A stretch of DNA of 64,000 bases from Noviherbaspirillum suwonense (GTDB lineage: Bacteria > Pseudomonadota > Gammaproteobacteria > Burkholderiales > Burkholderiaceae_D). Within the stretch, counting starts at the first letter, position 1, and each line of letters begins with the position of its first letter. Positions 43,888 to 63,206 of this stretch are shown piece by piece. The notes below the pieces were generated by a model. That model saw only the letters and a list, made by a program, of their open reading frames with translations. It searched no databases and had not been told where the DNA came from. Location of the stretch: assembly GCF_900182955.1 (NCBI RefSeq), contig NZ_FXUL01000001.1, positions 558,001 to 622,000 on the forward strand, written 5' to 3'. Both the position numbers and the translations under genes were made by a program.

Positions 43888-45141
43888 ATGAATGACAATG
43901 TCGCAGATGCAGCCATCGCAGGCGCCGCGCTGCAGCAGCGCTTCGACGCGGTGCGCCGGCGCTCGGTCAGCCTGGCCGAGCCGCTGTCGGAAGAAGACTG
44001 CTGCGTGCAGTCGATGCCGGACGCCAGCCCGGTCAAGTGGCACCTGGCGCACACGACCTGGTTTTTCGAGACCTTCATCCTGGAACGCCACGAGCCCGGC
44101 TTCGCGCCGCATCATCCGGCATTCCGGATGCTCTACAACTCCTATTACAACGGCGTCGGCGAGAAGCATGCGCGGGCGCAGCGCGGCCTGATCACGCGGC
44201 CCTCGTTCGATGAAGTGCTGTCCTACCGGCATGCGGTCGATGCCCGCATCGGCGCGCTGCTGCGGCAGGGCGACGAGGCGGTGGCGATGCTTGTGGACCT
44301 GGGCCTGCATCATGAACAGCAGCACCAGGAGCTGCTGCTGACCGACGTCAAGCACCTGCTGTCGATGAACCCGCTCTATCCGGCCTATGCCGCCGGCCCG
44401 CTGCCGGCCATGCCCGCCGCCAGGCCCCAGCGCTGGCAGGCTGTCGACGCCGGCGTGGTCGAGATCGGCCATGACGGCGACGGCTACAGCTTCGACAACG
44501 AGCTGCCGCGGCACCGCCAGTTCGTCGAGCCGTATGCGCTGGCGTCCCGCCTCTCGACCAACGGCGAGTACCTGGCCTTCGTGCAGGCCGGCGGCTACCG
44601 CGACCCGGCATACTGGCTCTCGGAGGGCTGGGACTGGGCACGCAACAACGGCCTTGCCAGTCCGCTGTACTGGCACGAGCAAGACGGCCAGTGGCACGAG
44701 TTCACGCTGCACGGCCTGCAGCCGCTCGACCTGAACCGCCCGGTCACCCACCTGTCGTATTTCGAAGCCGACGCCTTTGCCCGCTGGTCCGGCGCGCGGC
44801 TGCCGACCGAGGCGGAATGGGAACATGCAGCCGGCGACGCGCGCGACGACGCCGCGCGCAGCCTGCATCCGGGCGGCCATGCCGATGCCGACGGCCTGTG
44901 CCAGCTCTTCGGCGCCTGCTGGCAATGGACGTCGAGCAGCTATGCCCCTTACCCCGGTTATGCGCCGCAGCCGGGCGCGCTGGGCGAGTACAACGGCAAG
45001 TTCATGTCCAACCAGTACGTGCTGCGCGGTTCGTCCTGCGCGACCCCGGCCGGGCATGCGCGGCCGACCTACCGCAACTTCTTTCCCGCGTCTGCGCGGT
45101 GGCAGTTCAGTGGCGTGCGGCTGGCGCGTTCGCTGGGCTGA
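43888..45141 (+). CDS. egtB: Hercynine oxygenase (ergothioneine sulfoxide synthase)
   Basis: 417 residues. N-terminal DinB-like domain with iron ligands in WHLAHTTWFFETFIL and HHEQQHQELLLTDVKH, followed by the FGE-sulfatase-like domain (RLPTEAEWEHAAG, GACWQWTSSSY, VLRGSSCATPAGHARPTYRNFFPASARWQFSGVRLAR). It couples hercynine to a thiol donor with O2 on a mononuclear iron, after EgtD makes hercynine. AAGGA precedes the ATG. egtA, egtC and egtE are not in the window; some bacteria lack A and C and use cysteine directly, but which applies here cannot be told. Confidence 0.96.
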   Translation: MNDNVADAAIAGAALQQRFDAVRRRSVSLAEPLSEEDCCVQSMPDASPVKWHLAHTTWFFETFILERHEPGFAPHHPAFRMLYNSYYNGVGEKHARAQRGLITRPSFDEVLSYRHAVDARIGALLRQGDEAVAMLVDLGLHHEQQHQELLLTDVKHLLSMNPLYPAYAAGPLPAMPAARPQRWQAVDAGVVEIGHDGDGYSFDNELPRHRQFVEPYALASRLSTNGEYLAFVQAGGYRDPAYWLSEGWDWARNNGLASPLYWHEQDGQWHEFTLHGLQPLDLNRPVTHLSYFEADAFARWSGARLPTEAEWEHAAGDARDDAARSLHPGGHADADGLCQLFGACWQWTSSSYAPYPGYAPQPGALGEYNGKFMSNQYVLRGSSCATPAGHARPTYRNFFPASARWQFSGVRLARSLG

Positions 45142-45173
45142 ATGCGGCCTGAATCATCGATGGAGGTGGTGTG

Positions 45174-45539
45174 ATGCGCATGAGCGATGAGGAATATTTT
45201 CGCAGCTGTGTGGCGAGGGAGCGGCAGCTGGCGCACCTGCTGGGGCACAAGGTGGAGGAGTTCTACGAGGATGCGGGGACATTGTGGGATGGGACGGTTG
45301 CCATGCCCAAGTGGACGCGGAATTGGGCGGCTTGCGGGCCGTTGATCGCGGAGTATGAAATTGATGTGCGCTTTGAGCGCGAGGGGGGGGTGGGGCATGG
45401 ACATGGGCATGGGCATTGCATCCATGCGGGTGCTGTGACGGTGCAGGTTTCGGATCATCCGGATCGGCAGCATGCGTTGATGTATGCGGTGGTGAAGGCG
45501 GTGGTCCACTTGCTGGAGCATGGCGGGAAGAAGCGGTAA
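45174..45539 (+). CDS. Hypothetical protein with HGHGHGHC motif, DUF2591-like
   Basis: 121 residues; ATG 45174 has GGAGG at seven-base spacing. An acidic/aromatic start (SDEEYFRSCVARERQLAHLLGHKVEEFYED) is followed by WTRNWAACGPLIAEYEIDVRF, a pattern that resembles the W-x-GP-I-I-E motif of phage-type DUF2591 proteins. A run of four Gly-His pairs ending in Cys may bind metal. It follows egtB by 32 bp and directly precedes the palindromic element, so it may be a late addition to this operon. Function unknown. Confidence 0.65.
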   Translation: MRMSDEEYFRSCVARERQLAHLLGHKVEEFYEDAGTLWDGTVAMPKWTRNWAACGPLIAEYEIDVRFEREGGVGHGHGHGHCIHAGAVTVQVSDHPDRQHALMYAVVKAVVHLLEHGGKKR

Positions 45540-45552
45540 GGGGGTGCGGTGT

Positions 45553-45730
45553 GCCCCGCGCGGCGACCGTTGCGGTTGCAGTTAGCTCTGCGCAGCGACC
45601 GTTGCTGTTGACGTTCCGCGCAGCGACAGTTGCAGTGGCTTGTGAACTGGCGCCGTTGCAGCTGTGGCCGTTGCAGTTGCCGTTGCCGTTGCAGTTGCGG
45701 TTGCCTTTGAAGTGGCCGTTGCCGTTGTAG
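45553..45730 (-). repeat. Left GTTGCN hexamer tract of element A
   Basis: Degenerate tandem hexamers (GTTGCA, GTTGCC, GTTGCG) broken by a repeated block like CGCGCAGCGAC(C/A)GTTG that recurs at intervals. The tract is the mirror image of the right flank of element B. Its frames give Arg/Cys-rich nonsense proteins. Confidence 0.8.
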
Positions 45731-46333
45731 TGAATCCCCGTTAGATGGCGACGCGTCGCCAGTGCCTGAAACGGATAAAGAAGCGTCCGCTGTCTGAGCG
45801 AAGCGAGTTTCGGACGCTTCCCGTTTCAGGTGCTGGCGGCGCGTGCAGTCCGCGCAGCGGACCGCCATCGTAGGGGTCGCCTTTTTTGCCCCACTTTTTT
45901 GGCGAAGCAAAAAAGCGGGTCGGCTGCCGGGCCGAACACCCGGCTACTCCCCACGGCAGTGAAGCCTCAATGTTTCACCCGTCAGCAGACGCAGCATCGT
46001 CGCCTTGCGCTGTGGCGCGTTCTCGTAACGTGCAGCCGTCGCAAACTGCAAAAGCGGCTTCGCGACGGTACGCCTGCTGGCGGATGAAGCAATACCGTCT
46101 GTCCTGCCGGACGACCTAGCCGGGAGTCCGTCCCGGCGGCCGGGTCACTTCTTTTGCTTCGCCAAAAGAAGTAACCAAGAAAAGGCGACCCCGGAGATGC
46201 CGCCCCGCTGCGCGGGGTGCCCACGCCGCTGGCACCGAAATCGGGAAGCGTCCGAAACTCGCTTCGCTCAGACAGCGGACGCTTCTTTATCCGATTTCGG
46301 CACCAGCGACGTGGCGTCATCAACGGGGATTCA
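45731..46333. repeat. Palindromic hairpin-array core, element A (603 bp)
   Basis: Bounded by terminal inverted repeats TGAATCCCCGTT (45731-45742) and AACGGGGATTCA (46322-46333). Left arm hairpins: stem 1 CCTGAAACGG 45765-45774 with 45821-45830, stem 2 GAAGCGTCCG 45780-45789 with 45811-45820, stem 3 GTCCGC/GCGGAC 45848-45862, stem 4 CTTTTTTG/CAAAAAAG 45894-45915 around loop GCGAAG, stem 5 GCCGGG/CCCGGC 45926-45944. The right arm mirrors the order with different stem 1 (CCGAAATCGG), stem 3 (CCCCGC/GCGGGG) and stem 4 (ACTTCTTTTG/CAAAAGAAGT). About 150 bp in the centre are not palindromic. Reverse complement occurs at 62445-63045. No transposase; no coding frame is credible. Confidence 0.9.
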
Positions 46334-46493
46334 CTGCAACGGCCACTGCCAAGGCAACGGCCACTTCACAGACAACGGCAACGGCAACCGCAACGGCAAC
46401 GGCAACCGTCGCTGCGCGGAGCTAACTGCAACTGCAACAGTCGCTGCGCGGAGCTAACCGCAATCCCAACCGCAACCGTCGCTGCGCGGCGCC
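46334..46493 (+). repeat. Right hexamer tract of element A
   Basis: CAACGG/CAACCG-type hexamers, the reverse complement of GTTGCN, with interspersed GTCGCTGCGCGGAGCTAAC blocks. Matches the left flank of element B reversed. About 190 bp without recognisable features separate it from the asparaginase start. Confidence 0.8.
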
Positions 46494-46684
46494 ACGATCG
46501 CCCTGCGAAACGGATGACCTTACGATTGGTCATAAGACGTGATGAACGCGGCATTACACTGTCCGCTGCGCTGAACCCGTGCTGCCCGCTCCCGGCCCAA
46601 GCCATGCAATGGCATCCCTTTTCCGAACCGGGCACATTGTCAATGCGCGCACCATCCCCGCCACCTAACCAACCGGAGTCCGCC

Positions 46685-47770
46685 ATGTCGCCACATTTAT
46701 ATCGGCTACCAGCATTATTCCTCTACGCGCTGTTCCTAGCGCTAGCCCCCTTGGCCGCGGCCCAGCAAGCCGCCGCACCCCTCCCCAACGTACGGATCCT
46801 CGCCACCGGCGGCACCATCGCCGGCACCGGCGCAAGTTCCACCACCACGATCGGGTATACCGCAGCCAAGGTCGGCGTCGAGGCGCTGATTGCCGCGGTG
46901 CCGGAGCTGAAGAAAGTGGCGAACGTGAGCGGCGAGCAGGTGTTCCAGATCGCCAGCGAGAGCATGACCAATGCGCACTGGCTGACGCTGGCCAAGCGGG
47001 TCAATGCATTGCTGGCGCAGCCTGACGTGGACGGGATCGTCATTACCCATGGCACCGACACGATCGAGGAAACGGCGTATTTCCTGAACCTCGTGGTCAA
47101 GAGCAGGAAGCCGGTGGTGATCGTCGGTTCGATGCGGCCGTCGACGGCGATCAGCGCTGATGGGCCGATCAACCTGTATAACGCGGTCATCGTCGCCGGC
47201 AGCAAGGACGCGGTGGGCAAGGGCGTGCTGGTGGTGCTGAACGACCAGATCAACGGCGCGCGGGATGTGACGAAGGCCAACACGTCGACGCTGGACACGT
47301 TCCGTTCGCCGGAACTGGGGCTGCTAGGCTACATGCAGGACAACCGCGCGCACTTCTACCGGATGTCGACCCGCCGCCACACGCTGGAAACCGAGTTCGA
47401 TGTGAGCGCGCTGGAGCAGTTGCCGGCGGTGGACGTGGTCTACAGCCATGCCAATGTGAGCCGGGTGGGCATCGACGCCTTCGTCAATGCCGGCGACATC
47501 GGCCTGGTGTATGCGGGCGTCGGCGACGGCAGCCTTGCCGCGCAGGTGCGGCCGGCGCTGACCGAGGCGCGGCGCAAGGGCGTGGTGATCGTGCGGTCGA
47601 GCCGGGTCGGGCAGGGCATCGTGGCGCGCAATGGCGAAGCCAATGACGATGAACTGGACTTCGTGGTCTCCGACACGCTGAACCCGCAGAAGGCGCGCAT
47701 CCTGCTGATGCTGGCGCTGACCAAGACCCGCGATACCCGCGCGATACAGCAGATGTTCTATACCTATTGA
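46685..47770 (+). CDS. ansB: Type II (periplasmic) L-asparaginase
   Basis: 361 residues from ATG 46685, with GGAG at seven-base spacing. Signal peptide through about residue 26 (LFLALAPLAAA). The nucleophile Thr44 lies in ILATGGTIAGTG; the second catalytic Thr-Asp pair is in GIVITHGTDTIEETAYF. It hydrolyses asparagine to aspartate and ammonia in the periplasm, aiding nitrogen supply. The frame is open upstream to 46217 through the palindromic element, but this extension is low-complexity shadow. First gene inside the inverted pair. Confidence 0.93.
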   Translation: MSPHLYRLPALFLYALFLALAPLAAAQQAAAPLPNVRILATGGTIAGTGASSTTTIGYTAAKVGVEALIAAVPELKKVANVSGEQVFQIASESMTNAHWLTLAKRVNALLAQPDVDGIVITHGTDTIEETAYFLNLVVKSRKPVVIVGSMRPSTAISADGPINLYNAVIVAGSKDAVGKGVLVVLNDQINGARDVTKANTSTLDTFRSPELGLLGYMQDNRAHFYRMSTRRHTLETEFDVSALEQLPAVDVVYSHANVSRVGIDAFVNAGDIGLVYAGVGDGSLAAQVRPALTEARRKGVVIVRSSRVGQGIVARNGEANDDELDFVVSDTLNPQKARILLMLALTKTRDTRAIQQMFYTY

Positions 47771-47893
47771 ACGCCGCGCCTGCGCCTGGCGCTCCGACAG
47801 GCGGCGGGTTAAAGGGTCGAACAGCTGAAGGACGCCGCGGATTCGAGCAGCGGCACGCCGCCATGCCGCGCCGCGCCGCGCGCGGTCACGGCG

Positions 47894-48169
47894 TCAGTCG
47901 CGCCGGCGGTTCTTGTCGATGATCGCGTACAGGATCAGCGCATAGGCCAGCAGGCGCACCATGTAATAGGCCGGCAGGTCCTCGCGCCAGGCCGGCAGTA
48001 CGCCGAGCATTACCCGGTTGGCCGTCTCTATCCAGAAGGACAGGCCGAAGAGCAGGAAGAAACGGTCGCCGGTGACGCGCCAGAAGCGCATGAAGAAGCT
48101 GCCGATGACGAAGGACAGCGCCGCGATGGCGCCGATCACCAGGTGGCTCATGCCGTAGTAGTCAGTCAT
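47894..48169 (-). CDS. DUF5985-type small membrane protein
   Basis: 91 residues with three hydrophobic segments (about 9-28, 38-57 and 68-85) and a basic tail (DKNRRRD). Related in layout to the upstream 85-residue protein and recognisable as DUF5985. It starts eight bases before the upstream stop. The two may form a membrane complex. Last gene of the operon from the hybrid kinase. Confidence 0.82.
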   Translation of the reverse strand: MTDYYGMSHLVIGAIAALSFVIGSFFMRFWRVTGDRFFLLFGLSFWIETANRVMLGVLPAWREDLPAYYMVRLLAYALILYAIIDKNRRRD

Positions 48170-48419
48170 CTGTGATGAGTCCGTAGATCAGCGGCAGCAG
48201 CGCCACCAGCGAGGCGGCGAGGCGCAGCGGCAGCAGGTCGACATCCGGGAAGATCAGCTTGTCCAGCATCAGAAGCACATTCGACAGCGTGAGCCCGGTG
48301 AAGCACAGCGCGCTCCATAGCAGCAGCCGGTAGCGGCTGCGCAGGTAGCTGCGCCAGAGCAGCACCGCCGACAGCAGGGACGTCAGCGCGCACAGGCCGT
48401 AGATGACGGAAGCGATCAT
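48162..48419 (-). CDS. DUF5985-type small membrane protein
   Basis: 85 residues from ATG 48419, chosen because it overlaps the upstream stop as ATGA, with AGGA upstream; a longer start at 48437 is in frame. Three hydrophobic segments, RSYLRSRYRLLLWSALCFTGL between the first two. Paired DUF5985 genes after a winged-helix-like gene and a hybrid kinase recur in related genomes. Function unknown; membrane output or sensor of the kinase is a possibility. Confidence 0.82.
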   Translation of the reverse strand: MIASVIYGLCALTSLLSAVLLWRSYLRSRYRLLLWSALCFTGLTLSNVLLMLDKLIFPDVDLLPLRLAASLVALLPLIYGLITDD

Positions 48420-48808
48420 GGTTTTTTCCTGTCCCATTTGAACGCATCGGCGAATTCCCGGATGCGGGAATGCCGGCGCAGGCTTGCGTGAATCATGTTG
48501 GTCACTTCGATCAGGTTCTGGCTGTAGTAGCGCTCCAGGCTGCCGATCAGCGTGTCCAGCTCAGCAGTGGAGGGCGCGTAGCGGTGGGACGCGCCGGCCG
48601 CAGGCTCGACGGCGCAGATGCGCGCGACGGCCAGGTCGCCCAGGATGCCCGCGGTGCGCTCGACCGGCAGGTAGAGCCGCTGCGCAAGCCGCGGCGCGTC
48701 CCACGAGGCGCCGCTGCCGCGTATCAGCAGGATGGCTTCCAGGTGCGGAATCGATGGAATCGAGAAGATCAGCCGGCGCAGATCTTCTGTCAGAACCTCC
48801 GGCGTCAT
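48416..48808 (-). CDS. Winged-helix-like regulator in kinase/DUF5985 operon
   Basis: 130 residues. HLEAILLIRGSGASWDAPRLAQRLYLPVERTAGILGDL reads as a helix-turn-helix plus wing of the MarR/ArsR-like kind; a C-terminal helical region (YYSQNLIEVTNMIHASLRRH) could dimerise. No receiver or sensor domain. Four-base overlaps (ATGA) on both sides with the hybrid kinase and the first DUF5985 gene couple its synthesis to theirs, suggesting it is the transcriptional or protein partner of that system. Specific DNA target unknown. Confidence 0.65.
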   Translation of the reverse strand: MTPEVLTEDLRRLIFSIPSIPHLEAILLIRGSGASWDAPRLAQRLYLPVERTAGILGDLAVARICAVEPAAGASHRYAPSTAELDTLIGSLERYYSQNLIEVTNMIHASLRRHSRIREFADAFKWDRKKP

Positions 48809-50430
48809 CCAATGACGGGCGCCTTGCGGCAGGATGCAATGACTTCGCGCAGGCGTTCCGGCGGCACCGGCTTGACCAGGTGCAGGTCGAAGCCGGCCTG
48901 CAGCGCCCGCTGCTGGTCTTCATACAGGCCGTAGCCGGTCAGCGCGACCAGGCGCATGCCCCTGGTGGCCGGCGTGGCGCGCAGGCGCCGCGCGACTTCG
49001 TAGCCATCCATGCCGGGCAGGCCGAGGTCGACCAGCGCAATGTCGGGCAAGTGCGTGCAGGCAGCCTCCAGTCCCGCGGCGCCGTCGGCCGCCTGCAGCA
49101 CGCGGATACCGAAGGAGTCGAGCAGCATGACCATCATTTCCCGGCCGTCTTCATTGTCCTCGACGATCAGCGCGCAGCAGTCCGCCTGCGCTGCGTCGGC
49201 AAGGGCGGTCGAAGGCGCGGGCGCGGCGCTCGGCGCCCTGGCTTCGGGCAGGCGCAGCACGAAGCGGCTGCCCTTGCCGGCGCCGTCGCTGAACGCGGCG
49301 ATGCTGCCGTCGTGCAGGCCGACCAGCTGGTGCACCAGCGCCAGGCCGATGCCCATGCCGCCCTGCGCCCGGTCCAGCGAACTCTCGCCCTGGACGAACA
49401 CGTCGAACACGTGCGGCAGCAGTTCGGGCGCAATGCCGACGCCGCTGTCGCGCACTTCCAGCAGCGCGTCGCCGCCGTCGACGCCGGCGGCGATCTCGAC
49501 CACGCCGCCGGGCGCGGTGTACTTGAAGGCATTGTCGAGCAGGTTGATGATGATCTGTTCGACCCGCGTCGGGTCGGCGTCGACCCAGGCCGGCGCGCTT
49601 TCCAGGCGCACCGTGTAGTCGCGGGTGCGGCCGGTCGCGCTCAGGGTTTCCATGCAGGTCGCCAGCAGCGCCGACAGGTCGAAGCGCTTGCGTTCCAGCA
49701 GGATCTTGCCCGACATGACGCGGCCCAGGTCCAGCAGGTCGTCGACGATATGGCTCAGGTGCTGGCACTGGCGGCCGATGATGTGCTGGGCCCGCCGCGC
49801 GCTTTCCGGGCTGACGCCTTCCAGGCCGATCAGGGTGGCCGCGCTGCTGATGGCCGAAAGCGGGTTGCGCAATTCATGCCCCAGCATCGCCAGGAATTCA
49901 TCCTTGGCCCGGTTCTGCAGCACCGCCGCTTCCCTTTCGCGCTTTTCCTGCTCCAGCCGCTCGTTGAGCGCGGACAGTTCGAGGGTGCGGGTGCGCAGCG
50001 CTTCCGCATGGCTCTGCAGCTCCAGGGTCTTGCGGGCCATGGCGACGAACACGCCGACCTTGGCCTGCAGCATCTGCGGTATCACCGGCGTGAACAGGTA
50101 GTCGACCGCGCCTTTCTCATAGCCCTTCAGCCGGTGCATCTCGTCGGCCAGGTAAGCGGTGATGAAAATGATCGGGATGGCCGCCGAGCGCGGTCGCGAA
50201 TGGATCGCCTCGGCGGTCTCGAAGCCGTCCATGCCGGGCATGTTGACGTCCAGCAGAATCACCGCGAATTCATGCTGCAGCACCTGGCGCAGCGCTTCCT
50301 CGCCGGACCGGGCGGTCAGCACGGCGCAGCCGTTGTCCTCGGCCCAGCGCGACAGCAGGCTGGCGAGTGCGAACAGGCTCGCGGGGTCGTCATTGACGAT
50401 CAGGATCTTGGGCGTATCGGTTTTCTGCAC
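48805..50430 (-). CDS. Cytoplasmic hybrid histidine kinase (REC-HisKA-HATPase-REC)
   Basis: 541 residues from a GTG at 50430, which places the first receiver at residue 9 as expected. Receiver 1 (Asp61 in ILLDVNMPGMDG), a coiled-coil linker (about 140-180), HisKA with the phospho-His in MLGHELRNPLSAI, HATPase (NLLDNAFKYT, GMGIGLALVHQLV), then receiver 2 with IALVDLGLPGMDGYEV. No transmembrane helix, so it senses through receiver 1, probably phosphorylated by another kinase; the giant kinase at 50715-57530 diverging from it is an obvious candidate. It leads the operon ending in two DUF5985 proteins. Confidence 0.9.
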   Translation of the reverse strand: MQKTDTPKILIVNDDPASLFALASLLSRWAEDNGCAVLTARSGEEALRQVLQHEFAVILLDVNMPGMDGFETAEAIHSRPRSAAIPIIFITAYLADEMHRLKGYEKGAVDYLFTPVIPQMLQAKVGVFVAMARKTLELQSHAEALRTRTLELSALNERLEQEKREREAAVLQNRAKDEFLAMLGHELRNPLSAISSAATLIGLEGVSPESARRAQHIIGRQCQHLSHIVDDLLDLGRVMSGKILLERKRFDLSALLATCMETLSATGRTRDYTVRLESAPAWVDADPTRVEQIIINLLDNAFKYTAPGGVVEIAAGVDGGDALLEVRDSGVGIAPELLPHVFDVFVQGESSLDRAQGGMGIGLALVHQLVGLHDGSIAAFSDGAGKGSRFVLRLPEARAPSAAPAPSTALADAAQADCCALIVEDNEDGREMMVMLLDSFGIRVLQAADGAAGLEAACTHLPDIALVDLGLPGMDGYEVARRLRATPATRGMRLVALTGYGLYEDQQRALQAGFDLHLVKPVPPERLREVIASCRKAPVIG

Positions 50431-50714
50431 GTTTCTGCCATAAATAAGGTGCCGCGACCGCCGGAGGGCTGTCCCTCCGATGCCGCCGCGGCGCTGTTGC
50501 CCGAAGCAGTTAACTTGCGCTGGAAATTCCGCCGCGCTCCTGCGTTGCGGCGGACCGGATAGCAAACTTCTTGGATTTCTATTGAATTGCTATATAGAAA
50601 TTCGTGTGCGGTATTCGATATGTTTGAATCATAAGTTTTTTGGGGGCAACAAATCGCTTGCAAGGCTATCAGTGCCATTGGAGAATGTCAAAACCAATTG
50701 GAGACCAATCTGAC
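50431..50714. other. Divergent intergenic region between two hybrid kinases
   Basis: 284 bp. The half around 50560-50640 is AT-rich (TTGCTATATAGAAATTC, GTATTCGATATG), clearly promoter-like compared with the rest, but no -35/-10 pair with good spacing could be assigned on either strand. No operator palindrome seen. An ATG at 50685 is a possible alternative start of the right-hand gene. Confidence 0.5.
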
Positions 50715-57526
<6,812 letters not shown>

Positions 57527-57530
<4 letters not shown>

Positions 57531-58375
57531 GCCAGGGCGCAATCGCCCGCAGCGCAGTCGAGGAGATCGAGGCCGACCTTTTGCTGGAGGCGCTGCACCG
57601 GCGCTTCGACGCCGACCTGCGGGCGCTGGAGCGGGCGCCGCTGCGCGAGCGCCTGCTTGCCTTCATGCGCGCGCGCGACCTGCCGTCGCTGTCGGTGCTG
57701 CAGGCGCAGGCGCTGCATGACGAAGCGACCGGCCTGGCGCTGGTGCGCTGCCTGTCGGTACGGCCGGTTGCGCTGTTCGACGACCCGGCGCGCATCGCCA
57801 GCCTGCGCCAGGCGCTGGGGCCGTGGCTGCGGTCCTGCCCGATGGCGCGGGTATGGGTGTCCGAATGCAGCGGCGCGGAGGACGTGTACACGCTCGCCAT
57901 CCTGCTGCGCGAGGAAGGCTTCTACGACAAGACGCTGCTGTTCGCCACCTCGTCCAGCGAGGCGACGCTCGGCGCCGCCAGGCGCGGCCGCATCCCCGCC
58001 GCCGAGTTCGCGCGCTACCAGCAGAACTACCTGCGCTGCGGCGGCCGGCTGTCGCTGTCGGACTACCTCGAAGCCGAGCCGGATGAGGACGGCAACCTCG
58101 CCTTCCTGCCCGAACTGGGCCGCAACATCATCTGGGCGCAGTACAACCTCGCCACCGACGCCAGCTTCAACGAGTTCCAGCTCATCGTCTGCCGCGGCGC
58201 GCTGTCCGACCTGCGCCCGGCGCTCCGCCAGCGCGCGCTGGCGCTGTTCCACGAAAGCCTGGCCGTGTTCGGCTATCTCAGCATGCATCCCGGCGATGCG
58301 ATGGTGCAGTTGCCCAACGACGTGGACTTCAGGGCGGTGCATGCGGAGTCGGGGCTGTACAGGCGGGTGGCGTAG
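57527..58375 (+). CDS. CheR-like methyltransferase, degenerate
   Basis: 282 residues, ATGA overlap with the giant kinase. An N-terminal helical domain is followed by a CheR-like Rossmann domain: [18 protein letters not shown] corresponds to the CheR loop CSTGEEPYSLAML but lacks the conserved TGEEP, and [21 protein letters not shown] stands where CheR has the catalytic-region C-R-N-V-L-I-Y-F. Either it has altered chemistry or acts only as a binding partner. CheR proteins linked to hybrid kinases occur elsewhere, often with a CheB; none is seen here. 114 bp separate it from the following convergent lipoprotein gene. Confidence 0.8.
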
Positions 58376-58489
58376 GGCAGCAGGCAGGCCTGGCATGCAG
58401 TGCGCCTGGCGCATGCAAGCGCGTTGCATGCCAAGGTGTTGATGAAAGTGCCGCGGCGGCCCAGGAAGGCGTCGCCGGGTCGATGCATG

Positions 58490-59050
58490 CTACAGCGACT
58501 GCGCCGCGATCCTGGCCATGGCCGCGGCGATATTGTTCTTCGCCGCGCCTTCCGTTGCCAGCCGGACGCGCGTCACGCCGGCGAATGCTTCGCCGGGCGT
58601 GCTCGTGTGTTCCGACCGGATCCCTTCCTGCCAGACGACCTTGTCGGTCGCCATCCGTTTCAGCGTCCAGCCGACTTCCATGCTGACCGTCATCGCCATC
58701 CCGAACATCGGCTGGTGCAGCGCGAACACGTTTGCGGTCAGCAGGTAGTCGCCGCCATTGCCCTTGACGACCTGCGAGAACAGCCTGGACTCGCTGATCG
58801 CCTGGTTCAGCGCCGCTTCCAGCGCGGCATTGGAAATGCCCGGCCCATCCGCCGTCACGGCGCCGCCCGACACGTTCAGGCGCACGGTTTCCTGGAGTTT
58901 CCTGCTGACGGCGATGCCGGTCGGGACCATCCCTTCATGCGTCGGCGGCGACGCGCAGCCGCCAAGCAGGAACAGCGCCGCCAGCAGCGCGGCCACGCTC
59001 TTTTGCGCTGCGATGCGCGCGGCGAAGACGTGTGGCTTGATGATGTTCAT
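58490..59050 (-). CDS. Lipoprotein of unknown function
   Basis: 186 residues; lipobox FLLGGC at about 32 after a long n-region (an alternative shorter start may exist). The mature part has a compact alpha/beta pattern (RLNVSGGAVTADGPGISNAALEAALNQAI, MSMEVGWTLKRMATDKVVWQEG), a layout shared with other short proteobacterial lipoproteins sometimes mislabelled as acyltransferases; no catalytic motif visible. It starts eight bases after the stop of the next lipoprotein, so the two are co-transcribed. Confidence 0.85.
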   Translation of the reverse strand: MNIIKPHVFAARIAAQKSVAALLAALFLLGGCASPPTHEGMVPTGIAVSRKLQETVRLNVSGGAVTADGPGISNAALEAALNQAISESRLFSQVVKGNGGDYLLTANVFALHQPMFGMAMTVSMEVGWTLKRMATDKVVWQEGIRSEHTSTPGEAFAGVTRVRLATEGAAKNNIAAAMARIAAQSL

Positions 59051-59057
59051 GACGGCC

Positions 59058-59552
59058 TCAGCGCGCAGGTGCCGCTGATGCTGCTGCGGCCGCCGGCGCT
59101 TGCGCTGCGGCGGCCTTGGCCGGACTGAGCATGTTGCCCAGAACCTCGTCGACCATCTCGTCCGGCGACTTCCTGGTCAGGGACGTGTGGTAGGAATTCC
59201 CGACGGCCATCGGAAAGCTGGTGACCGGGTCGCGCAGGGTGACCGTGAGTTCGAGCATGTACATGGTGATGTCCCACATCCACCTGTCCACGTAGGACAG
59301 CGCTGCGTCGACCGGCTTGTCTGACTTGGGCGCGTCGCCTGTCGTCACGGTATAGCCGCGTTTTTCCAGGTTTGTCTTCAGGATCAGGTCGATCGCGCGA
59401 TCGTCGCCCTTTTCCTTTTCGATATAGATGGTGCGCACCTTGCCCAGGTCCGCGCCTGGAGTCAGGGTCGCGGTGGCGCGATTCACCGCGCAGCCGGTGC
59501 TGAGAAAAACAACTGCGGCGAGAGCGGCGATGCCGGGAATCCTCTTGATCAT
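59058..59552 (-). CDS. Lipoprotein of unknown function
   Basis: 164 residues; signal with lipobox FLSTGC at about 21. Mature part starts AVNRATATLTPGADLGKVRTIYIEKEKGDDR, has a YVDRWMWDITMYMLELTVTLRDP segment, then an Ala-rich tail. The pair with the preceding gene suggests an outer-membrane complex. A 195-bp gap with no recognised features precedes the upstream barrel gene. Confidence 0.86.
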   Translation of the reverse strand: MIKRIPGIAALAAVVFLSTGCAVNRATATLTPGADLGKVRTIYIEKEKGDDRAIDLILKTNLEKRGYTVTTGDAPKSDKPVDAALSYVDRWMWDITMYMLELTVTLRDPVTSFPMAVGNSYHTSLTRKSPDEMVDEVLGNMLSPAKAAAAQAPAAAAASAAPAR

Positions 59553-59747
59553 GAAATGTCCTTTTTATGGTGGAGTGGATCTGGGGTGGGTGCTTCGGGT
59601 AAATCGGCCTGCGGTGCTCTGCCGGCAGTGCGTCGCTGGACCGGCGCGTTGAGTAACCTGAATGGCTCTGGCTATCCGGACGGCTTGCGGCCCCGCGCAA
59701 CATTGACGGCATGTCCTGCATGCCTGGCGCCGGCTGCGGGGCTTCGG

Positions 59748-60557
59748 TCAGAAGCTGTACCGCACCGACAGCGTCAGGTTCTGCCGCACATGCTCGGGCT
59801 GCGTGACCTCGCCCGCGGCCCGCCCGTCCCGCGTGACCGGGTAGGCGGCGCTGCGCGGCACCCGCAGATAATCGAACTGGGCTGCGAAGACCAGCCTCGA
59901 CTGCGCCTCGGGCCGATAGCGCAGCGCCAGGGCGACGCCGTTCGCGGAGCGGGTGCGGATGGACACGTCGTCGAGCAGGCCGGAGAAACCGATGCGCAGG
60001 CGCTCCGGCGTCGCATGCACGAAGCTCGCTCCCGCGGTCAGCGTGCCGGGGCCGATCCCGGTCCCGGTCCCGGCGAAACGCCATGCCTGCTCGATGCCGA
60101 TCAGCAGGCGGCCGGATCGCGCATGTTCCTGCAAGCCGATTGCCTGGCCGCTGCCGCCGATATGCCGCCGCCAGGAATCGACGCCCAGTGCCGCGACGAT
60201 GTCGGTCGCATCCAGGATGCGGTACCGCAGCCCCAGTTGCGCCTCGGCCATCCGCGTGCCGGTCTCGCTGCGGTAGGGCCGGCCGTTCTGCAGCTGCCCG
60301 TCATAGTCGATATCGGCCTGGAACACCGCGGCCTCGCCAAACAGTTCCAGCGGCCCGGATCGATGCGCGAGCCTGCCGGCAATGCCGGGCAGCCAGCCGC
60401 TCTCGTGGACGATGCGGCTGCCGGCACGGTCATGTTCCGAAATGCTCGTATAGCGGACCGCGGGCGCCATCGATGCGTCGAACTGCGCATGTGCCGGCAG
60501 CGCTGCCGCCGCACCGGCGAACGCGAAGACAGCCAGCGTGATTTTTTCAGATTGCAT
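59748..60557 (-). CDS. Outer-membrane beta-barrel protein
   Basis: 269 residues. Signal peptide (LAVFAFAGAAAALPAHA, cleavage before QFDASM). The chain is an alternating pattern of amphipathic strands with aromatic residues and ends LSVRYSF, the terminal Phe typical for recognition by the BAM machinery. Length fits a barrel of about 12 strands. No substrate known. It lies 48 bp after the stop of the upstream lipoprotein gene and likely shares its transcript. Confidence 0.82.
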   Translation of the reverse strand: MQSEKITLAVFAFAGAAAALPAHAQFDASMAPAVRYTSISEHDRAGSRIVHESGWLPGIAGRLAHRSGPLELFGEAAVFQADIDYDGQLQNGRPYRSETGTRMAEAQLGLRYRILDATDIVAALGVDSWRRHIGGSGQAIGLQEHARSGRLLIGIEQAWRFAGTGTGIGPGTLTAGASFVHATPERLRIGFSGLLDDVSIRTRSANGVALALRYRPEAQSRLVFAAQFDYLRVPRSAAYPVTRDGRAAGEVTQPEHVRQNLTLSVRYSF

Positions 60558-60605
60558 GGGAGAAGGCAGCGCCGCCCGAAAGCGACGCCTGTTCCTGGAA
60601 CGGGA

Positions 60606-61655
60606 TCAGTTGAGCGCGTCGAACTGCGAGCGGGTGAGGGTGCTCGACGCCGAGACGACGCCATCGCCGTTGGCGCTGTATTCCACCAGCAGCGACGTGC
60701 CGTCGAGCGCCGTCACGGTGACCATCGCCGGCGAGCCGGTAATGCGCATCGCACCAGCGGAAACGAACGAACCGAAACCCGAGGTCACGACCGGACGCAC
60801 CGTCTCGACCCGGTAGACATAGGCGCCCAGCCTGGCCGAGGTGCCCGACAGCGTATAGCTGCCCGACAGCGATGTCGTGCTGCCGCTTTCCGTGCCGGTC
60901 AGGTTGAAATCGGCAAGGCTGTAGGCATTGGTCGCCATGCCCGACTGCGTGACGCTCAGGCCGAGGCGCTGGCCCGACAGGCCGACGCTGATGTCGCTGC
61001 TGCCGTTCTGGCTGGCCAGGATCTTCAGGGCGCCGTCGATCTGCACGCGCCGGTCGCCGTTGTTCATCAACAGGTTGCCGAACGTGGCTGTCAGGCCCAG
61101 GCTGTAGCGGTTGGTGTTGACCGGATCGCCGGACACCGAGTCGATCACGATCGACAGCGTGCCATTCAATGCCGGCAAATCGTCTTCGGCGCAGTTGTTG
61201 GCGGTGAGCGTCGCACGATCGCCGGCCGTGACCCTGTCGTCGCTGGCAGCCGATTCACTCACTGTCACGCTGCCGCCGCGGCTGCAGGCTTCGGTGTAGG
61301 TCGCGCCCGTCACGAACTGGCCCGTGGTCCGGGTAAAGCGCTTGTAGATCCGGGTCGATACCGAGGCCAGGCTGGACGCTGCCGCATTCGCATTCGCTTC
61401 GTTCACCTCGACGCCGGACGCGATCAGGCCGGTCGCGCTATTGAGGCTGGTCAGTTCGCCCAGTGGATCGAGCACCGTGGACGCGACGGTCTCGTAATTT
61501 GCCCTGGTGATCGCGGAGTAGGTCGCACCCGAATTCCCGGCGCTGCCGACGCTGGCCGCAACGCTGTCATTGCTGCCGCTCCCACCACCGCCGCATCCCA
61601 GCAGCGACGCATTGATCAGCACGGTGAGGCCGAGTTTCAGCTTGAAATTACGCAT
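60606..61655 (-). CDS. Exported lipoprotein, Gly/Ser/Thr-rich
   Basis: 349 residues from ATG 61655; an extension to 61712 is not supported. Lipobox NASLLGC at about 20 followed by GGGGSGS. The body is rich in Ser, Thr, Asn and small residues with repeated strand-like segments (SLSGSYTLSGTSARLGAYVYRVE), suggesting beta structure and surface exposure. Two Cys (EAC, NNC) may form a disulfide. Genes 61655 to 58490 are four in a row on the minus strand and look like one envelope locus of unknown function. Confidence 0.82.
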   Translation of the reverse strand: MRNFKLKLGLTVLINASLLGCGGGGSGSNDSVAASVGSAGNSGATYSAITRANYETVASTVLDPLGELTSLNSATGLIASGVEVNEANANAAASSLASVSTRIYKRFTRTTGQFVTGATYTEACSRGGSVTVSESAASDDRVTAGDRATLTANNCAEDDLPALNGTLSIVIDSVSGDPVNTNRYSLGLTATFGNLLMNNGDRRVQIDGALKILASQNGSSDISVGLSGQRLGLSVTQSGMATNAYSLADFNLTGTESGSTTSLSGSYTLSGTSARLGAYVYRVETVRPVVTSGFGSFVSAGAMRITGSPAMVTVTALDGTSLLVEYSANGDGVVSASSTLTRSQFDALN

Positions 61656-61907
61656 TCCTGTTTCCCTGTAAATTTTTGTTGTTCGAGTGTCGGGCGAGGC
61701 AAGGATTTTCACGGATGAAAGAACCTGGCTGACGCCGGCAGATTGCCGCCAGTCGGATGCAGGGCAATCGCGGACTGGATTATTGGCAATAAATTTCTTA
61801 TCGGCAATAACACGTTCAGGGGATATGGGATGCGGGCGCCTGGCTGGCGCGATGGACTTGCTGGAGGGAAGCTGCCGAGGCGCGGCACGACGCCGCGCCC
61901 TGGGGGA

Positions 61908-62222
61908 CTATCCGACGACGACTTCGCTGAACTGGATTACCGGCGTCTGGTCGGTGTAGTTGGGAATGTCGGCCATGATTTCGGGGGCATGCGGGCCGAA
62001 GCTTGCCTGGAAGGCTTCGACGGAATCGCAGAAGATATGGCACATGGCGACGTAGGTTGCGGGAGCGCCGGGGGCGCCGCCTGCGAGGCCCTTGTCGACG
62101 GTGTAGCTCTTGCAGCTGTCGCCCATTTTTTCCTTCACCATCGGCATGTGCTTGTCGCGGTAGTACTCATGGTTGAAGCGCGCGCCAGGGGTATTGGGGT
62201 ACATCACGCTGACTTTGATCAT
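61908..62222 (-). CDS. EthD-family protein
   Basis: 104 residues. The EthD pattern is clear: KVSVMYPNTPGARFNHEYYRDKHMPMVKEKMG, the middle APATYVAMCHIFCDSVEAFQASF and the end DIPNYTDQTPVIQFSEVV. EthD-like ferredoxin-fold proteins are small dimers, often associated with dioxygenase or ether-degradation pathways but with no fixed role. ATG 62222 follows a GGAGAC site. The gene stands between the envelope locus and element B; the open frame upstream is palindrome shadow. Confidence 0.9.
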   Translation of the reverse strand: MIKVSVMYPNTPGARFNHEYYRDKHMPMVKEKMGDSCKSYTVDKGLAGGAPGAPATYVAMCHIFCDSVEAFQASFGPHAPEIMADIPNYTDQTPVIQFSEVVVG

Positions 62223-62337
62223 GATCTGTCTCCGGGTTATTGAAGGGTTGTTGGGAGCATTGATCATGCAGAGAAAGCGGATTGCAGGCAAGGGGAGCAT
62301 TAAAGCCGATTGGCTTCCCGCAAGTGGTTTGGTTTGT

Positions 62338-62444
62338 TCCGCGCAGCGACCGTTGCGGTTGCAGTTAGCTCCGCGCAGCGACAGTTGCAGTTGCCGTTGT
62401 CTGTGAAGTGGCCGTGGCCGTTGCCTTGGCAGTGGCTGTTGCAG
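62338..62444 (-). repeat. Left hexamer tract of element B
   Basis: GTTGCN hexamers with CGCGCAGCGAC blocks, mirror of the right flank of element A. It starts directly after about 110 bp of unremarkable sequence following the EthD gene. Confidence 0.8.
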
Positions 62445-63045
62445 TGGGTCCCCGTTGATGACGCCACGCCGCTGGTGCCGAAATCGGATAAAGAAGCGTC
62501 CGCTGTCTGAGCGAAGCGAGTTTCGGACGCTTCCCGATTTCGGTGCCAGCGGCGTGGGCACCCCGCGTAGCGGGGCGGCATCTCCGGGGTCGCCTTCTCT
62601 TGCCTACTTCTCTTGGCGAAGCAAGAGAAGTAGGTCGGCTGCCGGGCCGAAACCCGGCTAGGTCGTCCGGCAGGACACACGTATTGCTTCATCCGCCAGC
62701 AGGCGTACCGTCGCGAAGCCGCTTTTGCAGTTTGCGACGGCTGCACGTTACGAGAACGCGCCACAGCGCAAGGCGACGATGCTGCGTCTGCTGACGGGTG
62801 GAACATTGAGGCTTCACTGCCGTGGGGAGTAGCCGGGTGTTCGGCCCGGCAGCCGACCCGCTTTTTTGCTTCGCCAAAAAAGTGGGGCAAAAAAGGCGAC
62901 CCCTACGATGGCGGTCCGCTGCGCGGACTGCACGCGCCGCCAGCACCTGAAACGGGAAGCGTCCGAAACTCGCTTCGCTCAGACAGCGGACGCTTCTTTA
63001 TCCGTTTCAGGCGCTGGCGACGCGTCGCCATCTAACGGGGATTCA
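62445..63045. repeat. Palindromic hairpin-array core, element B (601 bp)
   Basis: Reverse complement of element A core (45731-46333). Ends are TGGGTCCCCGTT and AACGGGGATTCA. Left arm hairpins: stem 1 CCGAAATCGG 62478-62487 with 62534-62543, stem 2 GAAGCGTCCG 62493-62502 with 62524-62533, stem 3 CCCCGC/GCGGGG 62561-62575, stem 4 CTACTTCTCTTG/CAAGAGAAGTAG 62604-62633 around loop GCGAAG. Right arm stem 1 is CCTGAAACGG 62946-62955 with 63002-63011. By eye the half from about 62680 to 63045 differs from element A at only three or so positions, the other half clearly more, mostly in stem 4 and its surroundings. Confidence 0.9.
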
Positions 63046-63206
63046 CTGCAACGGCAACGGCAACGGCAGCGGCAGCGGCAGCAGCAACCGCAACTGTCGA
63101 TGCGCGGGGCTAACTGCAACGGTCGCTACGCGGTCAACGTCAATGGCAACTGTCGCTACGCGGAACGTCAACAGCCATGGTCGCTGCGCGGCGCTAACGG
63201 CAACCC
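63046..63206 (+). repeat. Right hexamer tract of element B
   Basis: CAACGG/CAGCGG-type hexamers with GTCGCTACGCGG-like blocks, mirror of the left flank of element A. It ends about 50 bp before the azoR stop. Confidence 0.78.

What the first reader, a model, noticed from the sequence alone, without database searches (positions are those of the whole stretch)
45553..63206. Pair of near-identical multi-hairpin palindromic elements in inverted orientation
Element A (45553-46493) and element B (62338-63206) share the same design: GTTGCN hexamer tracts flanking a 603/601-bp core with 12-bp terminal inverted repeats and mirrored arms of stacked hairpins. About half of each core is nearly identical between copies, implying recent copying or conversion. 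No transposase or credible ORF lies inside, so they would be non-autonomous or structural. I know no name for this family, though related short motifs (GGCGAAGC between T/A-runs, the GAAGCGTCCG hairpin) are familiar from other proteobacterial genomes.
Basis: partly seen in the sequence, partly recalled or inferred. Interest (0 to 1): 0.85.

Follow-up and report, generated by a model that had tools for sequence, protein, structure and literature searches.

The report
Scattered palindrome with a triple-helix signature
This is a scattered non-coding DNA repeat of a soil bacterium, built from two mirrored copies of a folded unit that recurs in many related bacteria and carries sequence evidence of a three-stranded helix; what copies it and what it does are unknown.

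Summary
Elements A and B are 2 of 27 full copies (91-100% identical; 13 partial ones also fetched) in a genome of the genus Noviherbaspirillum. Each is two inverted copies of a ~210-nt unit: a long bulged hairpin with a conserved apex (TGTYTGAG-CGNAGC-GAGTTT), a mini-hairpin and a T-rich hairpin; GTTGCN arms abut the long hairpin. The long hairpin, with unrelated stems, occurs in 29 of 60 family genomes and 14 class genomes outside the order. 42 of 55 predicted pairs show two-sided changes. G.T outnumbers A.C on one strand (119:7; later loci 60:7), naming the folded strand. At the T-rich hairpin a third tract obeys the pyrimidine-triplex rule in 43 of 54 contexts (shuffle maximum 17); among words that can tell, 18 obey, 0 are plain copies, 8 neither. 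Copies favour 3' gene ends, are homogenised within species even at shared sites, and lack REP tags, target duplications and a genomic Y1 transposase. Best reading: a REP/BIME-like non-autonomous repeat recognised as a folded single strand, kept uniform by gene conversion, mover unknown. A and B are not a special pair.

The parts
45553..45735 (+). Element A, left arm: GTTGCN hexamers mixed with CCGCGNAGCGAC mini-hairpin motifs
   Evidence: loop GNA in 141 of 145 such motifs of the 40 own loci
45736..45945 (+). Element A, left unit, forward on +
   Evidence: CM R1 hit G000:C1:603747-603867 +
45751..45844 (+). Hairpin I of the left unit of A; bulge ATAAA 45775-45779, apex TGTCTGAGCGAAGCGAGTTT 45791-45810
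   Evidence: inverted repeat I18, folds, covariation of the unit
45848..45862 (+). Hairpin II of the left unit of A, GTCCGC-GCA-GCGGAC
45882..45914 (+). Putative triplex module of the left unit of A: w1 45882-45887, w2 45895-45900, w3 45909-45914
   Evidence: read; three-strand rule (symmetric word here, so uninformative alone)
45946..46115 (.). Spacer between the two units of A (limits approximate)
46116..46333 (-). Element A, right unit, forward on - strand
   Evidence: CM R1 hit G000:C1:604197-604318 -
46149..46183 (-). Putative triplex module of the right unit of A: w3 46149-46155, loop 46156-46163, w2 46164-46170, w1 46177-46183 (words AAAAGAA / TTCTTTT / TTTTCTT on -)
   Evidence: read; an asymmetric word of the kind that obeys the third-strand rule
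46203..46217 (-). Hairpin II of the right unit of A
46221..46314 (-). Hairpin I of the right unit of A
   Evidence: inverted repeat I19, fold L062:2109-2318:-
46334..46493 (-). Element A, right arm, NGCAAC hexamers and inverted mini-hairpin motifs
62338..62449 (+). Element B, left arm
62450..62660 (+). Element B, left unit (the type that is on the right in A), hairpin I 62464-62557
   Evidence: CM R1 hit G000:C1:620460-620581 +
62595..62629 (+). Putative triplex module of the left unit of B: w1 62595-62601, w2 62608-62614, w3 62623-62629 (TTCTCTT / TTCTCTT / AAGAGAA)
   Evidence: read; symmetric word, four distinct contexts of this kind
62840..63040 (-). Element B, right unit, hairpin I 62932-63025
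   Evidence: CM R1 hit G000:C1:620909-621029 -
62862..62894 (-). Putative triplex module of the right unit of B (w3 62862-62867, w2 62876-62881, w1 62889-62894)
   Evidence: read
63041..63206 (-). Element B, right arm
58376..58489 (.). Gap without element here; beside the same gene G003 has a full element and N. soli a broken remnant (remnant judged by eye)

Best explanation
A and B are copies of a dispersed, non-coding, REP/BIME-like repeat. The basic part is a unit of about 210 nt that works as a folded single strand: a long bulged hairpin with a conserved apex, a small GNA-loop hairpin and a T-rich hairpin able to take up a third pyrimidine strand. In this genus two units face each other (hairpin I outside), flanked by GTTGCN arms. 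SHOWN: copy number, architecture, compensatory changes, which strand folds, three-strand covariation, preference for 3' ends, homogenisation within species, lack of REP tags, of detectable target duplications and of a Y1 transposase hit in this genome. INFERRED: that the copies spread rarely, as non-autonomous elements, through an enzyme acting in trans on the folded strand (unknown, not a RAYT here); that ectopic gene conversion between the copies, and between the two halves of one copy, keeps them alike; and that they settle where they disturb promoters least. Whether the folded strand is DNA at the fork or RNA is open.
For: 27 full copies at 91-100%; the same architecture with other stems, by eye, in 3 of 3 other genomes of the genus. 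55 predicted pairs over 43 units, 42 with two-sided changes. Strand: Watson-Crick-seeded distinct stems give G.T 59:A.C 3 (80 stems, genus relatives), 15:3 (13, own), 45:1 (36, other genera), with 57 other mismatches in all; 40 loci fetched later, 38 with a unit, 60:7 and 39 other mismatches. Third strand: w1 equals the parallel complement of w3 in 43 of 54 distinct contexts with a perfect hairpin, 2000 shuffles mean 7.2, maximum 17; 25 of the 43 are symmetric words that cannot tell mirror from copy; of the asymmetric ones 18 follow the rule, 0 are direct copies, 8 neither. Apex loop GNA in 52 of 55 parsed apexes of the later loci, two of the other three being misparses. Context by codon-model gene calls: convergent 39, tandem 44, divergent 4 of 87 in the genus; other genera convergent 19 of 25 and 15 of 31, divergent 3 of 31; window gene pairs with gaps of 30 or more, convergent 6 and divergent 7 of 29. 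Homogenisation: all 38 distinct own units form one clade (support 1.0); shared-site identity 0.63-0.70 against 0.995 to another own site. No Y1_Tnp match in the own genome; none of 24 Y1_Tnp loci has a unit. No exact apex in viral contigs, no match of the core in phages.
Against: No mover was found, so mobility rests on filled and empty sites: the gene left of A has no element beside it in 3 of 3 relatives. Target duplications: mean longest match 4.33 against 4.25 for mispaired flanks, 24 copies. Recent within-species changes show little strand asymmetry (27 towards G.T, up to 21 towards A.C). Single units in tandem context do not face one way relative to the genes: 8 along, 9 against. A simpler ORF caller gives weaker placement for the relatives in the genus (convergent 16, divergent 9 of 51) and, with close genes only, 15 of 19 and 13 of 27 convergent in the other genera. 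In the triplex module a lower stem (GTTAC/GTGAC) competes with the third strand. Contexts and stems are related by descent, so shuffles overstate significance. Outside the family the module was parsed in only two genomes, so the class-wide part is hairpin I alone.
Confidence: 0.55

Rival explanations
1. The unit is a functional RNA of 3' ends: transcribed read-through RNA folds into hairpins and a U.A-U / C.G-C triple helix that stops transcription or protects the RNA end, and the repeat is kept for that.
For: Preference for 3' ends; G.T >> A.C on one strand, which the REP literature reads as a sign of transcription (PMC3733652, passages); apex kept over the class; terminator-like sites 6 against 1.9 +/- 1.4 in shuffles for 45100-46900, 5 of them in the element.
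Against: Single units in tandem contexts face both ways (8 along, 9 against) and tend to oppose replication in 8 complete genomes (24 of 34). No Rfam family at gathering score. DNA-type C(GNA)G loops recur.
Confidence: 0.25
2. A chromosome-structure site: between convergent genes the cruciform/triplex DNA takes up supercoils or binds gyrase or a nucleoid protein, as proposed for BIMEs (recalled).
For: Convergent bias; large inverted repeats; the three-strand rule also fits H-DNA in duplex DNA.
Confidence: 0.12
3. A MITE of an ordinary (DDE-type) insertion sequence.
For: Inverted ends, no gene inside, many copies, filled and empty sites.
Against: No target duplication; arms differ in length and content from copy to copy, so no fixed terminus was seen; units also occur singly and mostly in the opposite pairing in other genera. 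A parent IS was not searched for systematically.
Confidence: 0.05
4. Coding repeat or artefact: the ORFs across the core encode a small protein family, or the repeat is an assembly product.
For: Long open frames run through the GC-rich core on both strands.
Against: Core length varies by single bases among copies and the T-run words vary from 5 to 8 letters, which shifts frames; copies have different flanks; found in independently assembled named genomes.
Confidence: 0.01

Closest known systems
REP / BIME / REPIN elements with RAYT transposases
   Same: Intergenic, high copy, palindromic, often inverted doublets, preferred between unidirectional and convergent genes, G.T pairs in stems (PMC3733652, PMC8266576, PMC3116915, abstracts and passages only)
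   Different: Unit ~210 nt instead of 20-50 nt; no GTAG or CGTC tag (3 and 0 of 43); no Y1_Tnp in this genome and no unit beside 24 Y1_Tnp loci; several hairpins and a triplex-type module per unit
Intrastrand triplex repeats TM_ECO / BoxC / PIT (PMC4666352; abstract, passages, sections 15 and 16 and part 1 of section 20 read)
   Same: Intergenic repeat predicted to form a triplex within one strand; also occurs as inverted pairs; found in many Proteobacteria
   Different: TM_ECO is a G/C-rich purine-motif triplex with consensus CCCTCNCCC...GGGNGAGGG...; here an A/T-rich pyrimidine-motif module (order Y-Y-R) embedded in a larger unit, supported by three-strand covariation
MITEs / IS200-IS605 ends
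   Same: Non-coding, hairpin ends, dispersed copies
   Different: No target duplication, no fixed ends seen, no matching transposase found in the searches made
Extra-stable d(GCGNAGC) mini-hairpins (recalled; only listings)
   Same: Hairpin tips are mostly GCGNAGC with N free
   Different: Known as a thermodynamic rule, not as a repeat family

Membership tests
REP/BIME/REPIN | short palindrome of 20-50 nt | tested here: not met
   hairpin I alone spans 94 nt (45751-45844); unit ~210 nt
REP/BIME/REPIN | unpaired GTAG (or CGTC) tag at one foot | tested here: not met
   GTAG within 12 nt of the foot in 3 of 43 units, CGTC in 0 of 43
REP/BIME/REPIN | associated RAYT (Y1_Tnp) gene in the genome | tested here: not met
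   0 matches of PF01797 in the own genome; 29 of the 40 genomes searched have one, the own not among them; none of 24 such loci has a unit (two anchors checked and false)
REP/BIME/REPIN | intergenic, at 3' ends, rare between divergent genes | tested here: met
   divergent 4 of 87, 3 of 31; weaker with a simpler caller, 9 of 51 in the genus
REP/BIME/REPIN | inverted doublets | tested here: met
   25 of 27 own sites paired; 26 inverted pairs among 61 sites in 8 complete genomes
Intrastrand triplex repeat (TM_ECO/BoxC) | G/C-rich consensus CCCTCNCCC-N3-6-GGGNGAGGG-N3-GGGNGAGGG | tested here: not met
   by eye only; the module is T-rich
Intrastrand triplex (pyrimidine motif) in general | third strand complementary by the T.A-T / C.G-C parallel rule | tested here: met
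   43 of 54 contexts, shuffles at most 17; asymmetric words 18 for, 8 neither, 0 direct copies
Intrastrand triplex (pyrimidine motif) in general | triplex forms physically | not testable with these tools
   needs CD, NMR or probing
MITE | target-site duplication | tested here: not met
   24 copies
MITE | parent insertion sequence with the same ends | not tested
   only PF01797 was searched
Known RNA family | match to an Rfam model at gathering score | tested here: not met
   0 in window 40000-64000, 0 in 10 loci; sub-threshold hits only

The most novel reading that the evidence does not exclude
The unit is an undescribed class of structured nucleic-acid element: its long hairpin with the tandem-GA/GNA apex reaches across the Gammaproteobacteria in the GTDB sense, and in the family it carries a built-in pyrimidine triple helix (seen outside the family in two genomes so far). 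It is recognised and copied by an unknown, non-RAYT machinery acting on one folded strand; in Noviherbaspirillum it has been turned inside-out into ~900-bp palindromes that evolve in concert.
Probability: 0.35. Interest if true: 0.85.

Novelty: new variant of a known kind. Interest (0 to 1): 0.72.

Why it matters
Bacterial palindromic repeats are usually filed as REPs driven by RAYTs. Here a far larger repeat persists at 27 or more near-identical copies in a genome without any Y1 transposase hit, and carries the sequence signature of a natural triple helix, something rarely supported by covariation in bacteria (recalled). The third-strand rule, the 119:7 strand test and the widely kept apex turn an old question, what keeps and moves such repeats, into concrete tests on one short sequence. 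It also warns that near-identical repeats need not be recent copies.

Tried and rejected
RAYT/Y1 link: rejected (two apparent anchors beside Y1 loci, L220 and L229, have only 10 and 8 of 17 stem pairs and are false). Rfam: nothing at gathering score; isrG, mir-1893 and symR hits were far below it. Phage, plasmid and viral origin: the core has no match in phages and one 75-base piece in a Variovorax replicon; 0 viral contigs with the exact apex. These searches used this genus's core or one exact apex, so distant units could be missed. Target duplications: none. Exact apex over the order: 3 of 300 genomes including the own, too strict; the covariance model did better. First loop tally with perfect stems of 7 or more (GNA in 7 of 13 distinct loop-3 hairpins; outside 11 of 192) missed the real hairpins. 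Hairpin II loops by automatic parsing are noisy: C(GNA)G in 20 of 56. Hairpin III loop GCGAAGC 50, GCGGAGC 8 of 73. Direct-copy relation of the T words: 66 of 118 against 27 expected, replaced by the mirror (third-strand) rule. One search counted 18 for the rule, 15 'direct copies' and 7 neither; the 15 are CTTTTTT (14) and CCTTTTT (1), whose leading C belongs to the flank; strips it. A kink-turn reading of the apex was considered and left open. Gene context (10 convergent, 14 tandem, 0 divergent, 3 incomplete) had spurious ORFs and was redone. Of the shared-flank matches several were dropped because the element in the relative lies 1 kb or more away (L003, L037, L043, L045 sites) or the match was only 64% identical (L010); L054 flank matches are its own repeat; kept: L006, L009, L031, L038. 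One further site (L048, upstream of an flgF-like gene, also in N. pedocola L030) was seen by eye only. Papers: searches gave no description of this unit in what I saw of them; absence from print is claimed only for those searches.
Full report
What was checked. The A core folds as single-stranded DNA far better than shuffles (z -19.6, 0 of 100). B, reversed, is 96.6% identical to A over 590 positions, so the likeness covers the whole core, not half.

Where it is. The window is part of a 6.45-Mb genome in 78 contigs (G000). A 941-base query gave 134 matches; the 591-base core gave 80. I fetched 40 places: 27 hold a full core (A and B among them), 13 are partial, 11 of these at contig ends, some perhaps two ends of one element. 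Three more genomes of the genus are held and by eye all three carry the same architecture with other stem sequences. A pattern of arm plus junction in named genomes returned 64 stretches, 61 from Noviherbaspirillum soli and N. pedocola and three others that do not carry the core.

The unit. Each element is two inverted copies of a unit of about 210 nt. I aligned 43 units from 28 of 30 loci (L067-L092 of the family search, of which L090 and L092 gave none, plus L012, L024, L026 and L062 of the genus). By eye the outer stem of hairpin I is in all 43 predicted folds: about 24 pairs with free sequence, an A-rich bulge of 4-5 nt, an inner stem of about 10 pairs with free sequence, and the apex TGTYTGAG-CGNAGC-GAGTTT, expanded by further GCGNA steps in much of the genus. 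The units were collected with an anchor on the apex, so its conservation there is partly by construction. Then come hairpin II, often CCCC-GNA-GGGG, the word GGTCGCC, and the T-rich hairpin III with loop mostly GGCGNAGC. RNAalifold predicts 55 pairs, 42 of them with a change on both sides. A core search scoring two candidates per genome had found 89 of 294 family genomes, 22 of 44 genera. A covariance model of hairpin I found 29 of 60 family genomes, the own and two of its genus included, and in a class sample of 229, 15 genomes: the own one and 14 outside the order, from 11 families. E-values of this model are rough. Nine class loci were printed and all show the apex, seven with a GNA loop, two with AGA or ATA, one with a changed letter before the loop. 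Hairpin III was parsed in only one of these nine (L253), and in a genome of another family of the order (L240/L243); so the class-wide part is hairpin I. Large searches scored only part of the candidates, so misses are not proof of absence.

Which strand folds. With stems registered on Watson-Crick pairs only, mismatches on the forward strand (the one with the GNA loops) are G.T 119, A.C 7 and 57 others in 129 distinct stems, and 60, 7 and 39 in 54 stems from 40 loci fetched later, of which 38 had a unit (these came from model R1 hits in twelve family genomes, some of genera already sampled). A G.T on this strand is an A.C on the other, so this names the folded strand. It does not tell RNA from single-stranded DNA. 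Young changes within species are less one-sided (27 towards G.T, up to 21 towards A.C, some of the latter perhaps restoring G-C; unpaired C>T 25 and G>A 18), which argues against a strong mutation bias and for a slow filter, but weakens the case for strong present-day selection.

Three strands. Hairpin III reads w1 - loop - w2 - GGCGNAGC - w3. w2 and w3 pair. w1 matches w3 in the parallel sense, T over A and C over G, in sequence and length: 43 of 54 distinct contexts with a perfect w2-w3 hairpin (2000 shuffles: mean 7.2, maximum 17). Of 69 distinct contexts 15 had an imperfect hairpin and were set aside. 25 of the 43 are symmetric words, in which a mirror and a plain copy are the same; 3 symmetric words disagree. 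For asymmetric words 18 follow the rule, none is a direct copy, 8 are neither. Examples are TTTTCTT / TTCTTTT / AAAAGAA and the swapped TTCTTTT / TTTTCTT / AAGAAAA. The two genomes outside the family in which the module was parsed follow it too, one with the 8-letter word TTTCTTTT / TTTTCTTT / AAAGAAAA. This is the rule of a pyrimidine-motif triple helix. A lower stem next to w2 and w3 competes for the loop, so the two forms may exclude each other. The closest precedent in print is the purine-motif intrastrand triplex TM_ECO/BoxC, for which triplexes were shown in vitro but not in vivo, and no promoter or terminator activity was found (PMC4666352). Its consensus is not met here.

Loops. Of 145 arm motifs in the 40 own loci the loop is GNA in 141 (GCA 107, GTA 32, GAA 2), and of 55 apexes parsed in the later loci 52. 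GNA loops are known to make very stable DNA mini-hairpins (recalled). This favours DNA, mildly.

Placement. With a codon-model gene caller, sites in the genus are convergent 39, tandem 44, divergent 4 of 87 (27 own, 28 G003, 32 N. soli and N. pedocola); one more G003 cluster was left unclassified. The 27 own sites are 25 full elements and two single units. In other genera 19 of 25 are convergent and 15 of 31 in the later loci, 3 divergent, 8 unclassified. The window's own gene pairs with a gap of 30 or more are 6 convergent and 7 divergent of 29. A cruder caller gave, for the relatives of the genus with L047 and L048, 16 convergent and 9 divergent of 51, and for the other genera 15 of 19 and 13 of 27 convergent. 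Single units in tandem context run along the genes in 8 and against in 9. In eight complete genomes single units oppose replication in 24 of 34 (p 0.024, origin assumed at dnaA, terminus opposite, genome lengths rounded). All 26 inverted pairs there have hairpin I inside, as do 9 of 10 in the first family loci, L076 being the exception, whereas the inverted pairs of the genus have it outside (25 own, 20 G003, 24 others). The pair, not only the unit, therefore seems to be inherited as a block within a clade.

History of sites. The gene left of A has no element beside it in N. pedocola, G003 or N. soli. At window 58376-58489 G003 has an element, the own genome none, and N. soli by eye a remnant. 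Flanks of the 27 full own copies were compared with 29 G003 and 61 N. soli or N. pedocola loci, plus 14 more loci of the relatives: four sites have an element beside the same gene in a relative (L006, L009, L031, L038); for L006 and L009 both flanks match. Yet all 38 distinct own units form one clade with support 1.0, and at shared sites the best identity is 0.63-0.70 to the relative's element and 0.995 to another own site. So either old copies are homogenised by conversion, or favoured sites are refilled. The two halves of a copy also share their inner stem within a species (by eye), which suggests conversion between halves.

What it is not. No Y1 transposase match in the own genome while 29 of the 40 genomes searched have one; none of 24 Y1 loci has a unit; no GTAG or CGTC tag; no target duplication; no Rfam match at gathering score; the core is not in phages and nearly absent from plasmids, the exact apex not in viral contigs; coding is unlikely (indels of one base).

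Verdict. Shown: a real, dispersed, structured, strand-specific repeat with three-strand covariation, kept uniform within species and placed mainly at gene ends. Inferred: spread in trans as a folded strand by an unknown enzyme. Open: DNA or RNA, and whether the host uses it.

Noticed in passing
L012, L016, L020, L028, L029, L142, L147, L197, L217 (genus relatives): A second repeat, an inverted pair around GTAGGGTGCAATACCC...GGGTATTGCACCCTAC, sits beside or inside the palindromes; in L020 and at the N. soli site matching window 58376-58489 it appears by eye to interrupt or replace part of an element.
   Followed up: partly
L070, L072, L075, L090: A C/G-rich repeat of the kind CCCTCCCCTTCAAGGGGAGGG..GGGGTAGGGATGGGG lies beside the units and by eye resembles the published triplex motif TM_ECO/BoxC.
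   Followed up: no
L047, L048 (G000:C16 and C4): Two own copies keep only the left unit and stop at nearly the same place in the spacer; L048 lies upstream of an flgF-like gene (named by eye) where N. pedocola (L030) has an element.
   Followed up: no
G000 contig ends (C1, C5, C6, C13, C14, C17, C23, C28, C29): Contigs of the own assembly end inside this repeat, so the true copy number is probably above 27 and the repeat limits the assembly.
   Followed up: no
window 45171-46697: Right of the gene that ends at 45539, N. pedocola, G003 and N. soli carry what looks like a small reverse-strand glycine-rich gene instead of element A (read by eye).
   Followed up: no
L240, L242 (other families of the order): Units with the same apex in two other families; in L240 hairpin I is duplicated in tandem.
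   Followed up: partly
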